From Enchytraeus crypticus (Eukaryota > Annelida > Clitellata > Enchytraeida > Enchytraeidae), in contig CAJHZI010000708.1 in assembly GCA_905160935.1 (NCBI GenBank), forward strand, positions 186,001 through 250,000: a DNA stretch of 64,000 nucleotides. Direction: 5' to 3'. A program made the position numbers and the translations under genes. Below are positions 272-57,198 of this stretch, one piece after another (within the stretch, counting starts at the first letter, position 1; each line of letters begins with the position of its first letter). The notes below the pieces were generated by a model. It saw only the letters and a program-made list of their open reading frames with translations, was not told the DNA's origin and made no database searches.

Positions 272-483
272 AGTCACGTGTTCACTTTGTTTTGTTGTTT
301 GTTGTTGCTCAGTAGAGGCTCACGTGACCTGCCGCTATCAGGTCACGTGTTCACTGTATTGTTGTTGTTGCTCAGGAGAGGATCACGTGACCTACCTCTA
401 TCAGGTCACGTGTTCACTGTGTTGTTGTTGTTGCTGCTCAGGAAAGGCTCACGTGACTTACCTCTATCAGGTCACGTGTTCAC
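272..483 (+). repeat. Acceptor-spanning tandem repeat with CACGTG hairpins
   Basis: Three units of about 63-66 bp each hold a T/G-rich tract, a GCTCAG acceptor and a near-palindrome made of CACGTGACCT, a 9-nt loop and AGGTCACGTG. The 3'-most unit runs into the probable exon at 442. The CACGTG cores are also E-box sequences. Confidence 0.8.
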
Positions 484-700
484 GCGGCAGAGCCGTGAGG
501 AGGCGACCTGGTCTATGTGCGCTGAGTGTGACACAGCCTGGATGGGTGGGACTTGTCGTGACCACGCCTCCACCCTGCTGCTCAGAGCCTATCAGAGAGA
601 CAACTACCTGCTCGTGGGCGTGGCTAGAGAGGAGAGGAAGGCGGAGCTAGAGAGAACACTGGAGGATATTAGACATGTGGCCCTGCAGTGGAACAACTAG
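442..700 (+). CDS. Probable last coding exon of an unrecognised gene
   Basis: An open frame runs into a TAG stop at 698-700. Its last 70 or so codons are GC-richer and less repetitive than the flanks. The most likely exon start is after the TGCTCAG acceptor ending at 441, leaving one base to complete a split codon. The translated segment has a Cys-rich stretch (MCAECDTAWMGGTC) and a charged, probably helical end (REERKAELERTLEDIRHVAL) closing with WNN. I do not recognise the family. Upstream exons would lie left of the window. The acceptor and exon head are repeated twice more just upstream (copies starting near 313 and 376), spaced by multiples of three so the frame stays open. A 14-bp satellite starts directly after the stop. 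Confidence 0.45.
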
Positions 701-53748: not shown

Positions 53749-56700
53749 ATTCATTGATTCATTGATTCATTCATTCATTCACTGGGACTGTCTCAGAACT
53801 CTCACCAAACACAACACCAGCAACATGCAAATCAAAGTCTATGCAATAGACTTAAAGTAATAAAATCATAAACGCACTTGCAAATTAAGCATCATTAGAG
53901 AGAGCGTGATAAAAAAGGAGAAAGAGACAGAGAAAGACACAGAGAGAGAGATAGAGACAGAGAGAGAGAGAGACAGAGAGAGGAAGATAAAAACAAAGAG
54001 AGAGCGAGACAGAGAGAGAGAGACATACAGGAGTCTTTAATGGTGAGAGTCAGCACTGTAGCACTCTCTAGCTCTGTGTAGTTTGCTGTGTATTTATACC
54101 CCTCCACCACCATCCTGTCTCTATGCGTCTCCATGACGATCATCCCCTCAGAGTCTGTTGCCGTGGTAATGTGCGCTGACCCCTCCCGCACGTGTTCACG
54201 TAGGACTGCACCGTGCCTCACCCAGCGCATGAGCACCGGCCTCACTGTGGCAGCCAGCGAGCAGCCAATCGTCAGCGTCTCTCCTGATCTATTCAATAGA
54301 GCGGGTGTCTCCTCCACTGTCAATCAATCAATCAATCAATCAACCAATCAATCAATAGTCAGCGGCTCTCCTGATCTGTTCAATAGAGCGGGAGTCTCCT
54401 CCACTGTCAATCAATCAATCAATCAATCACTACCAGAAATCACTAAATCACGTCTGATAGTAAATTTGAAACAATCAATCAATAGTTAATTTCACATCTA
54501 ACCTGTGCGACACATCATCAGGGCCTGTCATTTCTGTCACTACGTGTATGTATATTTGCAAGTATATGTTTATGTATATGTGTATGTATATGTGTACGTA
54601 TATGTGTATGTATATGTGTATGTATTTGTGTATGTATAAGCATAAGTGTATGTATATGTGCATGTATATGTGTACGTAAATGTGTACGTAAATGTGTATG
54701 TATATGTGCACGTATATGTGCACGTATATGTGTACGTAAATGTGTACGTATATGTGTAAGTATGTGTACGTAAATGTGTATGTATATGTGTACGTATATG
54801 TGTACGTATATGTGTACGTAAATGTGTACATATATGTGTAAGTATATGTGTACGTATATATGCATGTATGTGTAGGTATAAGTGCACGTATATGTGTATG
54901 TATATGTGCACGTATATCTGTAAGTATATGTGCACGTATATGTGTGTGAATATGTGTATATGTGTACGTATATATGCATGTATGTGTAGGTATAAGTGCA
55001 CGTATATGTGCATGTATATGTGCACGTATATGTGTAAGTATATGTGCACGTATATGTGTATGAATATGTGTATGTGACATACCTGCTAGCACAATCACGT
55101 CTACGACATAGGGCACGTCGTGAGGATGTGTGGAGGGTTCAGTGAGAGCACACTGGTAGGAGCCGCTGTCACGTAATGTCACGTGTTTCTTGTGTAATGT
55201 GCTGTTGAGCACGGGTGATCTCACATATCTACGGTAGGGCGTCGTGTAGAAGCCTGACTCACTCGAGTCATTGATGTGAACGTACGTTGAGCGTCTGTCA
55301 GACTACAACACAGTACAGTACAGTACAACACAGTACAACACAGCACAGTACAGTACAACACGGTACAACACAGTACAATACAGTACAATGCAGTACAGTA
55401 GAGTACAACACAGTACAGTAGAGTACAGAAGAGTACAGTACAGTACAACACAGTACAGTAGAGTACAATACAGTACAATACAGTACAACACAGTACTATA
55501 CAGTACAACATAGTACAATACAGTACAATGCAGTATAACAAAGTCTAAAGAGGGTAAAGTGCAACTCAGTGTAGTACAATTCAGTACAAATAGAGTAAAG
55601 TACAATAAAGTATAAATAGAGTACAGTACAACACAGTACAATACAGAAAAAATAGAGTCCTGTACAACACCGTTCCATAGAGTAAAAATAGAGTACTGTA
55701 CAGTACAGTACTATACAGTAAAAATACAGTACTGGACAGTACTGTACACTACATTAAGAATAGTATAATATAGTAGAAGAACAACAGAGTACATATAAAG
55801 TACTAAATATTCAGTGCAGTTCATCAGAATTCTGTTCAGTAAAGTACAAGAGAGTGCAATGTAATATCAGTAAATACAGAACAATAAGGATGATTATACA
55901 CACAGCTTTACAAATTCTTCAATAGCGTCTTTATTCAACCAACCGCTTTACACAACACTATTGACTAATGTTAATGTGGTATCTTGTATAAATACATTGA
56001 TTGATTGATTGATAAACTAACCTTAAACAGCCAGTTGACCCTTCTGCCCTCGGACTGGGTACAGGTTAATTCTAATGCACCGCCTCTAGCTACATACACA
56101 GGCTGTATATCAGGGGCAGTAACCCTTGTGGTACCTACACATACACACACACATACACACATACATACACACACACATACACACACACACAGGCTGTATA
56201 TCAGGGGCAGTAACCCTTGTGATACCTACACATACACACACACATACATGCACACATACACATACACACGCTGTATATCAGGGGCCGTTATCCTTGTGGT
56301 ACTTACATACACACACACATATATGCACACATACACACACACTTGCACAGGCTGTATATCATGGGCCGTTATCCTTGTGGTACTTACATACACACACACA
56401 TATATGCACACATACACACACACTTGCACAGGCTGTATATCAGGGCAGTAACCCTTGTGGTACCTACACATACACACACACATACACGCACACATACACA
56501 CATATACAGGCTGTATATCAGGGGCCTTTATCCTTGTGGTACCTACACATACACACACACATAACTGCACACATACACAGGCTGTATATCAGGGACTGTT
56601 ATCCTTGTGGTACCTACACATATACACACACATACATGCACACATACACATACATACACAGGCTGCATATCAGGTGCCGTTATCCTTGTGGTACCTACAC

Positions 56701-57198
56701 ATACACACACATACACACACACATACACACACACTTGTACAGGCTGTATATCAGGAGCCGTTATTCTTGTAGTACCTTCAATACACACACACATATACAC
56801 ATACACACACATATTTATCGCTCGCCAGCTGATGACAGGAGCACAGTACTGGTGGGTTTGGCAGGATATAAAACCCTCGACTTCTTGCTTACCCGGCAAA
56901 CTACACTCCCATTTCATAGCTGATACAATACTGGAGCCAGTGGTGAAGTCGGTAAGACACTTGACCGCAGATCAGTATTTGCGGGTTCAAATCCTGGGCT
57001 CGCCCGTCACTCACATCGCTTTCGAGAGAGGAAACTGACGTTAACCTTAGCCTTACCAGCTTTATAAACAATTCTGTACAATATTTAAGTGAAATCATCC
57101 ATGACCGAGTACTACTTACCTTTCACACACGTCAGAGTAAAGCTGAGCAATATTAGAGAGGAAGTGAAGCAGACTGCTGCATGGCTTACACGGACCAT
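50811..57198 (-). CDS. BSG: Basigin/neuroplastin-family Ig membrane protein (477 aa)
   Basis: Eight exons (minus strand): 57198-57120, 56134-56022, 55302-55083, 54316-54029, 53349-53269, 52631-52269, 51835-51700, 50964-50811. They total 1,434 bp, 477 aa plus TAG. Residues 1-26 are a signal peptide (VCFTSSLILLSFTLTC). Ig1 is exons 2-3 (Cys51, Trp61, DSGSYQC Cys115), Ig2 exons 4-5 (Cys156, DIGHYGC Cys243), Ig3 exon 6 (Cys284, DRAQYVC Cys335); domain borders are phase 1. About nine N-glycosylation sequons are present. Exon 7 is diagnostic: RLAALWPLLGIIIELIVLCI with Glu396 inside the TM helix and then a basic ERKKAREKREE tail, the hallmark of basigin/neuroplastin/embigin. Family members escort monocarboxylate transporters to the plasma membrane and act in adhesion. 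The three-Ig layout resembles basigin-1 and neuroplastin-65. The Ser/Gly-rich tail with two DK(V/L)RY motifs is not familiar. Basigin versus neuroplastin orthology is unresolved. Confidence 0.93.
51025..51185. repeat. 44-46-bp minisatellite
   Basis: Three copies of AATTAACACTACAACTAATC plus ATATCTTTATCGTAGAG in intron 7 of the basigin-like gene. Confidence 0.93.
51329..51378 (+). repeat. Short tail element, copy 7
   Basis: ACGTCCCTGACATTATCCTA then GCGAGGAACCGGACGTTAAA. It is preceded by (ATC)n, followed by (GATT)n, then a family 5 fragment. Confidence 0.8.
51537..51699 (-). repeat. 32-bp minisatellite starting at basigin exon 7 donor
   Basis: In minus sense, about five to six units of GTCTGTGTGTCTACCTCTCT plus ATATGCGCCT begin right at the GTATGT donor. 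The unit contains no exon sequence, so it is not counted as an exon-boundary array. Confidence 0.9.
51820..52145 (-). repeat. Acceptor-spanning array at basigin exon 7, about 10 copies
   Basis: The 34-bp unit (minus sense) is TGGTTGATTGCAG, the exon head GTAGGCTAGCAGCTC and TTTGA/TGTGA. Upstream units progressively decay (GCAG becomes ACATCTAG and ACACCTAG). The copy at 51835 is the real TM exon. Confidence 0.93.
52955..53088 (+). mobile_element. tRNA-derived SINE, family 1 (diverged copy)
   Basis: GCCGGCGACATGTTGTCATG, CCCCGCCACTGACATGTTTT and CAGGAAGCTAATGTTAAGC align with the family body. The B box is eroded. Confidence 0.6.
53335..53456 (-). repeat. Acceptor-spanning array at basigin exon 5, 3 copies
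   Basis: In minus sense, GATTGTCTAG|ATGAGGAAGA and decayed copies at about 53,410 (CCAG|ATGAGG) and 53,450 (CTAG|ATGAGGAAGA), separated by (GATT)n. The copy at 53349 is the true exon. Confidence 0.88.
53470..53945. repeat. Two copies of a 100-bp intron segment about 365 bp apart
   Basis: CTATGCAATAAACTTAAAGC to AGAGACAGAG at 53,470-53,575 recurs at 53,838-53,945 with scattered substitutions, within intron 4 of the basigin-like gene. Confidence 0.85.
54270..54415 (-). repeat. Acceptor-spanning duplication at basigin exon 4
   Basis: The acceptor (GATTGACAG) and about 60 nt of exon head (VEETPALLNRSGETLT) are repeated once upstream in minus sense, starting at 54403. The real exon starts at 54316. 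There are two or three substitutions between copies. Confidence 0.93.
54545..55078. repeat. TATGTGTACG-type minisatellite
   Basis: Over 500 bp of 6-12 bp TATGTG/TACGTA/AATGTG units fills most of basigin intron 3. All His/Tyr/Thr-rich ORFs here are artefacts. Confidence 0.97.
55303..55745. repeat. CAGTACAACA-type minisatellite at basigin exon 3 acceptor
   Basis: Five-to-ten-bp units of AGTACA/ACACAGT extend for about 440 bp directly upstream (minus sense) of the exon 3 acceptor, giving TGTACTGTACTGTGTTGTAG as the intron tail. Confidence 0.95.
56095..56790 (-). repeat. Acceptor-spanning array at basigin exon 2, about 9 copies
   Basis: The 75-88-bp unit (minus sense) is (GT)n, GTAG, an exon head of about 38 nt (GTACCACAAGGGTTACTGCC, then CTGATATACAGCCTGTGT) and (GT)n again. 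The copy at 56134 is the exon. Upstream copies show TACTGCC to AACGGCC and similar drift, so each has diverged independently. Confidence 0.95.
56931..57065 (+). mobile_element. tRNA-derived SINE, family 1 (best-preserved head)
   Basis: TGGAGCCAGTGGTGAAGTCG, GCGGGTTCAAATCCTGGGCT (B box), CCGTCACTCACATCGC, GAGGAAACTGACGTTAACC, ending ACCAGCTTTATAA. It lies in basigin intron 1. Confidence 0.9.

What the first reader, a model, noticed from the sequence alone, without database searches (positions are those of the whole stretch)
272..56790. Window-wide class of tandem repeats that straddle 3' splice sites
At 16 of about 30 coding-exon acceptors the end of the intron plus the first 10-75 nt of the exon is tandemly repeated upstream. 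The intact exon is always the 3'-most copy. Loci: left-edge exon (442); receptor A exons 2 and 5; receptor B exons 2, 5 and 7; malic enzyme exons 2, 3, 6, 7, 10 and 11; basigin exons 2, 4, 5 and 7. Copy number runs from 2 to about 10. Only two clear exon-end equivalents exist (malic enzyme exon 8, receptor A stop). Random tandem duplication filtered by selection should leave donor-side arrays about as often, so the roughly 16:2 bias suggests a mechanism or tolerance tied to acceptors. One inference is that introns here grow by repeatedly pushing decaying acceptor copies upstream. Unit sequences differ between loci, so this is a process and not a mobile repeat family.
Basis: partly seen in the sequence, partly recalled or inferred. 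Interest (0 to 1): 0.93.

Follow-up and report, generated by a model that had tools for sequence, protein, structure and literature searches.

The report
Splice-acceptor minisatellites ("mirages") in an annelid
In the genome of a small soil worm, many exons are preceded by tandem copies of their own beginning together with the splice signal; the kind is known from lancelets, and here it sits mostly at the start rather than the end of exons.

Summary
In four modelled genes plus one edge exon, 17 of 32 acceptors carry upstream copies of the intron end plus exon start; 2 of 31 donors carry the mirror arrangement; wrong-side controls 0 of 63. The genome matches Enchytraeus crypticus, an annelid (mitochondrion 15,205 bp, largest scaffold 5,688,427 bp). 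A second sample from the same genome (chaperonin, myosin, SNF exons) shows the bias more weakly: 17 of 105 left edges against 4 of 105 right edges in a boundary-free test. Two units searched occur only in their own gene or its paralogue, so no mobile family. The kind is known: lancelet "mirages", found at both boundaries (PMC3087553, PMC3902484; passages read). New here: another phylum, a count, and two facts about process. Against a rotation null the window's asymmetry is mainly a shortage of donor arrays; in the sample neither side departs significantly. Two paralogues share array breakpoints, yet copies resemble their own host exon. "Introns grow this way" is not supported: arrayed introns are not longer. 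Which acceptor the cell uses was not testable here.

The parts
273..483 (+). Array over the acceptor of the left-edge exon (starts 442), about 63 bp x 3.2
34945..43414 (+). Malic enzyme gene, 11 exons
   Evidence: open joined frame; PF00390, PF03949
35262..35632 (+). Array over malic enzyme exon 2 acceptor (exon starts 35589), 75 bp x 4.9
   Evidence: unit found only here in the genome
38242..38441 (+). Array over malic enzyme exon 3 acceptor (38424), 37-43 bp spacing
39819..40136 (+). Two-copy duplication (155 bp) over malic enzyme exon 6 acceptor (40057)
40268..40602 (+). Array over malic enzyme exon 7 acceptor (40560), spacing 67-113 bp
42588..42675 (+). Array over malic enzyme exon 10 acceptor (42663), 36 bp
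43004..43204 (+). Array over malic enzyme exon 11 acceptor (43172), 75-80 bp
41680..41831 (+). Donor-side array at malic enzyme exon 8 (exon ends 41689), 58 bp x 2.6
50811..57198 (-). Basigin-like Ig gene, 8 exons
56092..56790 (-). Array over basigin-like exon 2 acceptor (56134), 7 upstream copies
54266..54429 (-). Two-copy array over basigin-like exon 4 acceptor (54316), 87 bp
53340..53459 (-). Single degenerate upstream copy at basigin-like exon 5 acceptor (53349)
51820..52160 (-). Array over basigin-like exon 7 acceptor (51835), 34 bp, 9 upstream copies of identity 0.7 or more
2480..8950 (-). Receptor A gene (GrA), 8 modelled exons
7503..7605 (-). Array over GrA exon 2 acceptor (7531), 43 bp
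5039..5699 (-). Array over GrA exon 5 acceptor (5096), mostly 84-93 bp, 6 upstream copies
   Evidence: unit only in GrA and GrB
3819..4067 (-).
5945..6190 (-). Donor-side copy at GrA exon 4 (exon ends 6173), copy 214 nt downstream
12233..20806 (-). Receptor B gene (GrB), 8 exons, tandem paralogue of GrA
   Evidence: open joined frame; PF08395 7tm_7
18161..18428 (-). Array over GrB exon 2 acceptor (18191), 43 bp
14740..14945 (-). Two-copy array over GrB exon 5 acceptor (14798), 121 bp
12348..12866 (-). Array over GrB exon 8 acceptor (12367), 42-130 bp spacing, 8 upstream copies

Best explanation
These are exon-anchored minisatellites of the kind called mirages in lancelets. Ordinary tandem duplication (slippage or template switching, then unequal exchange) keeps making arrays in the introns of this worm. 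When an array crosses an acceptor, the intact exon stays downstream of the last copy; splicing most likely uses that exon-proximal, 3'-most acceptor, so the array is nearly invisible to selection. Arrays that cross a donor are removed more often, probably because an identical downstream donor competes with the true one. Turnover ties the array to its exon, so copies track the host exon. Shown: the structures, the acceptor bias, its presence elsewhere in the genome, donor depletion against a rotation null in the window, shared breakpoints with host-like copies in two paralogues, and that most AG-bearing decoys in the window would break the protein if used. Inferred: which acceptor the cell uses, why donors are less tolerated, and how the duplications arise.
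For: Window 17 of 32 acceptors vs 2 of 31 donors. Independent sample: curated 18 of 87 vs 5 clear plus 1 weak of 87 (p 0.006-0.014); boundary-free 17 of 105 vs 4 of 105 (p 0.005). Rotation null in the window: acceptors 14 vs 8.4 expected, donors 1 vs 8.5. Arrays confined to introns are symmetric in the window, 0.196 vs 0.176 coverage within 200 nt. Window decoys with AG: 49 of 56 copies; 35 would bring a stop, 6 a frameshift, 8 stay open. GrA and GrB: same breakpoints, copies closer to own exon. Units unique to their locus or paralogue, 2 of 17 searched. Lancelet mirages: regular splicing by RT-PCR reported.
Against: In the sample the departures from the rotation null are not significant (acceptors 12 vs 10.0, p 0.29; donors 6 vs 9.7, p 0.13) and intron-only arrays are also biased to acceptors (0.162 vs 0.088), which points to some mutational bias. 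SNF exons showed no acceptor arrays: 0 of 18. The upstream decay is absent in the sample, 4:4:2. Clear donor arrays exist, so donors are not forbidden. No RNA evidence was available. Two arrays at the same breakpoints in paralogues could in principle have arisen twice.
Confidence: 0.6

Rival explanations
1. Mutational bias: the 3' ends of introns are hot spots for duplication, because pyrimidine tracts and GATT/TTG microsatellites seed slippage there, and selection is symmetric.
For: In the sample, microsatellites cover 0.09-0.11 of the 50 nt above acceptors against 0.00-0.01 below donors, and intron-only arrays are 1.8 times denser on the acceptor side. Several units include GATT or TTG runs.
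Against: In the window neither microsatellites (0.31-0.33 vs 0.26-0.33) nor intron-only arrays (0.196 vs 0.176) differ between the sides, yet crossings are 14 to 1. Arrayed acceptors have long di/tri/tetra runs in 9 of 35 cases against 10 of 84 for the others, p 0.10.
Confidence: 0.25
2. A function: the extra acceptors regulate splicing or make alternative products (for example extra hydrophobic segments in receptor B exon 8).
For: In GrB exon 8, 7 of 8 decoys would keep the frame open.
Against: 41 of 49 AG-bearing window decoys would bring a stop or frameshift; 7 of the 8 open ones lie in one array. Units share no sequence between genes by eye.
Confidence: 0.07
3. The arrays are a mobile repeat family that inserts at acceptors.
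For: The same pattern recurs in many genes.
Against: Each unit contains the host's own exon start; two units searched genome-wide hit only their own array or the paralogue.
Confidence: 0.02
4. The extra copies are assembly errors.
For: Hybrid PacBio/Illumina MaSuRCA assembly (PMC8460440); the lancelet paper reports one mirage that the draft genome had misassembled.
Against: Window arrays span under 700 bp, copies differ by point changes, and they keep an orderly relation to exons on both strands and in many contigs. Exact copy numbers may still be wrong; no reads were available here.
Confidence: 0.03

Closest known systems
Mirage minisatellites of amphioxus (Adh3, globins BflGb6 and BflGb9, TnC, PGBD5). 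PMC3087553: passages; PMC3902484: one passage; Canestro 2002 seen only as a citation
   Same: Tandem units that span an intron-exon boundary, several copies, unit sizes of tens to about 160 bp, intact exon as the end copy, both boundaries affected.
   Different: Annelid, not cephalochordate; counted over many genes; clearly more acceptors than donors. No such ratio stands in the passages that I read.
Human internal tandem repeats at exon-intron boundaries (PMC2812944, passages)
   Same: Tandem repeats that overlap exon-intron boundaries.
   Different: There tied to recent segmental duplications and to new introns or alternative transcripts; here widespread in single conserved genes.
Intron gain by tandem duplication of a proto-splice site (PMC2891723, abstract and outline)
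   Same: Tandem duplication of sequence with splice-competent sites.
   Different: Concerns new intron positions; here intron positions are shared between GrA and GrB and only the acceptor region is repeated.

Membership tests
Mirage minisatellites | Tandem unit spans an intron-exon boundary | tested here: met
   17 of 32 acceptors, 2 of 31 donors
Mirage minisatellites | Can occur at 5' and 3' splice sites | tested here: met
   Clear donor arrays in the sample: C131, C404, C189, C410
Mirage minisatellites | Unit size within the published range (Adh3 10-72 bp, globins 150-160 bp) | tested here: met
   33-155 bp spacing in the window; published sizes
Mirage minisatellites | Does not disturb regular splicing | not testable with these tools
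   No RNA data here; open joined frames only imply it
Mirage minisatellites | Length polymorphism between alleles and somatic instability | not testable with these tools
   One assembly, no reads
Mobile or dispersed intron family | Related units dispersed over the genome | tested here: not met
   2 of 17 window units searched, hits only at their own locus or the paralogue
Intron gain or growth by tandem duplication | Arrayed introns are longer | tested here: not met
   Medians 627.5 vs 637 nt, p 0.84, 31 introns
Intron gain or growth by tandem duplication | Arrayed introns sit at new positions | not tested
   Only the two paralogues were compared, and they share intron positions

The most novel reading that the evidence does not exclude
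In this annelid the starts of coding exons are live members of intronic minisatellites: decoys and exon exchange sequence over the life of gene duplicates, so part of the coding sequence evolves by minisatellite turnover, and the arrays persist because splicing ignores every acceptor but the last while it does not ignore extra donors.
Probability: 0.25. Interest if true: 0.75.

Novelty: new member of a known kind. Interest (0 to 1): 0.5.

Why it matters
Lancelet mirages are reported from a few genes. Finding them in a distant phylum, common enough to count, makes two questions directly testable: how splicing picks one acceptor among up to ten near-identical ones, and why extra donors are rarer than extra acceptors. 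The worm is a laboratory soil model with public transcriptome data (PMC8460440). Such decoys may also mislead gene predictors at exon starts (inference).

Tried and rejected
Mobile family: not supported for the two units searched. Amphioxus as the source: considered because of the mirage papers, rejected by mitochondrial size and gene order. Recursive splicing as the tolerance mechanism (exon starts with GT): looked at by eye in the list only, no clear enrichment, not pursued. Microsatellite seeding: weak (p 0.10). Upstream decay as a general rule: window only. Intron growth: no.

Rows dropped or left out. Three of the 90 (C373, C259, C400) were left out as lacking usable introns, giving 87. 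After counting I rejected one acceptor (C620 exon 1, a lone match 728 nt away) and two donors (C368 exon 3, where the array begins at the stop codon; C131 exon 2, a dispersed repeat) and called one donor weak (C336); the C620 exon 0 donor was kept though the script had placed the site 13 nt too far. In the SNF set (18 of 93 rows fetched) 3 of 18 donors were flagged and judged overruns of the homology block into intron repeats (L088, L093, L095); several splice sites there were poorly placed, hence the boundary-free test. That test with offset 0: 22 vs 7 of 105, wrong side 1 and 0; offset 6: 17 vs 4, wrong side 0; offset 12: 13 vs 3, wrong side 0; one of the 4 is an overrun (L094).
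Full report
What was checked. Malic enzyme (11 exons, + strand), a basigin-like Ig gene (8 exons, - strand) and receptor B (8 exons, - strand) give open joined frames; receptor A (8 exons) was modelled by eye against B, and one exon end was corrected before counting.

Count in the window. 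For each acceptor I looked for copies of the first 14 exon bases (up to 2 mismatches) in the upstream intron, and for TRF arrays crossing the junction; for donors, the mirror test. Acceptors: 17 of 32. Donors: 2 of 31. Wrong side: 0 of 63.

Which organism. The genome has 802 contigs and 524 Mb. Contig C802 is a 15,205-bp mitochondrion. Its order, named by my reading of the frames (only COX1 comes from a family search), is cox1-cox2-cox3-nad6-cob-atp6-nad5-nad4L-nad4-(rRNA gap)-nad1-nad3-nad2. PMC8460440 (passages and outline) gives for Enchytraeus crypticus a 15,205-bp mitochondrion with the Lumbricus order apart from one non-coding segment, and a largest scaffold of 5,688,427 bp, the length of contig C765 here. 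The paper counts 910 scaffolds and 525.2 Mb; the difference from 802 contigs and 524.2 Mb I did not explain.

Is it general? I sampled exons of the same genome by family search: chaperonins, myosin heads and SNF transporters (18 of 93 rows fetched). With inferred splice sites, 19 of 87 chaperonin and myosin acceptors and 8 of 87 donors were positive; wrong side 0 of 174. After reading each positive alignment I keep 18 acceptors (11 chaperonin, 7 myosin), 5 clear donors and 1 weak one. A test that uses only the homologous coding block gives 17 of 105 left edges against 4 of 105 right edges (p 0.0047, or 0.0016 without one overrun). By family: chaperonins 12 vs 0 of 44, myosins 5 vs 3 of 43, SNF 0 vs 1 (the overrun) of 18. 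So it is uneven between families, and this window is richer than the sample (17/32 vs 18/105 acceptors, p 1e-4). Pooled with the window, curated, 35 of 119 acceptors and 7 of 118 donors, p 2e-6; the window prompted the question, so I lean on the sample.

What the bias means. In the sample, array coverage is 0.27-0.30 at 25-200 nt above acceptors, 0.10-0.19 at 25-200 nt below donors, and 0.09-0.12 beyond 300 nt on either side. Rotating arrays gives the crossings expected without constraint. Window: acceptors 14 of 31 against 8.4 (p 0.016), donors 1 of 31 against 8.5 (0 of 500). Sample: acceptors 12 of 87 against 10.0 (p 0.29), donors 6 of 87 against 9.7 (p 0.13); one of these six is the stop-codon array that I reject. 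Arrays confined to introns are symmetric in the window (0.196 vs 0.176 within 200 nt) but not in the sample (0.162 vs 0.088). My reading: acceptor-crossing arrays are close to neutral, donor-crossing ones tend to be removed, and some mutational bias toward intron 3' ends is added. The sample alone does not prove donor removal.

What the copies would do. Of 56 upstream copies at the 16 internal window arrays, 49 keep AG; if used, 35 would bring a stop, 6 a frameshift, and 8 would stay open, 7 of them in receptor B exon 8. Over all 35 curated arrays AG stands in 91 of 116 matched copies; at 7 donors GT or GC stands in 15 of 22. The open frames require the last acceptor; its use is inferred, no RNA was read. 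That exon definition favours the exon-proximal acceptor, and that competing donors are harmful, is general knowledge recalled, not a call.

History. Receptors A and B carry arrays at the acceptors of exons 2 and 5. In exon 2 both have period 43 and the alignments part at the same exon position (27 and 31 nt by extension); in exon 5 the exon parts are 58 and 59 nt. Yet A's exon 2 copy is 0.89 like the A exon and 0.63 like B; the four B copies are 0.78-0.89 like B and 0.63-0.67 like A; in exon 5 A copies are 0.86-0.98 like A and 0.84-0.89 like B, the B copy 0.91 like B and 0.84 like A. Either the arrays predate the gene duplication and have been renewed from their own exon, or they arose twice at the same points. 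Exons 6 (A) and 8 (B) are arrayed in one paralogue only. Nearest copies are more exon-like than farthest ones in the window (8:1:2) but not in the sample (4:4:2). Arrayed introns are not longer.

Uniqueness of units. The malic enzyme exon 2 unit matches only its own array in the genome; the receptor exon 5 unit only the two receptors. The other 15 units were not searched (one attempt did not complete).

Prior knowledge. PMC3087553 (passages) describes such structures in lancelet globins, cites Adh3 and other genes, notes both boundaries, reports regular splicing by RT-PCR, and proposes a route to intron gain. PMC3902484 (one passage) adds TnC and PGBD5. PMC2812944 (passages) and PMC2891723 (abstract and outline) treat related human and fly cases. 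Searches of the held library listed no paper that I recognised, from titles and starts of abstracts, as reporting this in annelids; most subscription papers are not held.

Verdict. A real feature of a known kind: mirage minisatellites in another phylum, common in this window, present elsewhere in the genome, and biased to acceptors, in the window largely because donors are spared.

Noticed in passing
window 12348-12866: The receptor B exon 8 array stays open in frame over most copies and would encode repeated hydrophobic stretches (frame).
   Followed up: partly
window 6172, 15194, 41690: Three inferred introns start with GC instead of GT (receptor A and B exon 4, malic enzyme exon 8).
   Followed up: no
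window 56950-57060, 15960-16070, 49960-50060; C131 myosin locus: A dispersed repeat with a tRNA-like look (the likeness is recalled, not from a call) recurs in introns and flanks.
   Followed up: no
window 2373-2532; G000:C368 chaperonin last exon (L042): Arrays that start at the end of a coding region: receptor A (68 bp) and a chaperonin gene (22 bp x 8 from the stop codon).
   Followed up: partly
window 36516-36987: A 62-bp array of 7.6 copies, 99% alike, inside malic enzyme intron 2 and away from any modelled junction.
   Followed up: no
G000:C129 myosin exon 388227-388355 (L066/L076 stretch): Largest sampled acceptor array: 11 upstream copies, about 53 bp each.
   Followed up: partly
G000:C336 and C668 myosin loci (L065, L063): Two similar myosin genes have upstream copies at the corresponding acceptor with different spacing (54 and 78 nt), the latter weak.
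   Followed up: no
G000:C373:1699388-1700899 (L017): A chaperonin-family match in one open frame of 554 aa without introns.
   Followed up: no
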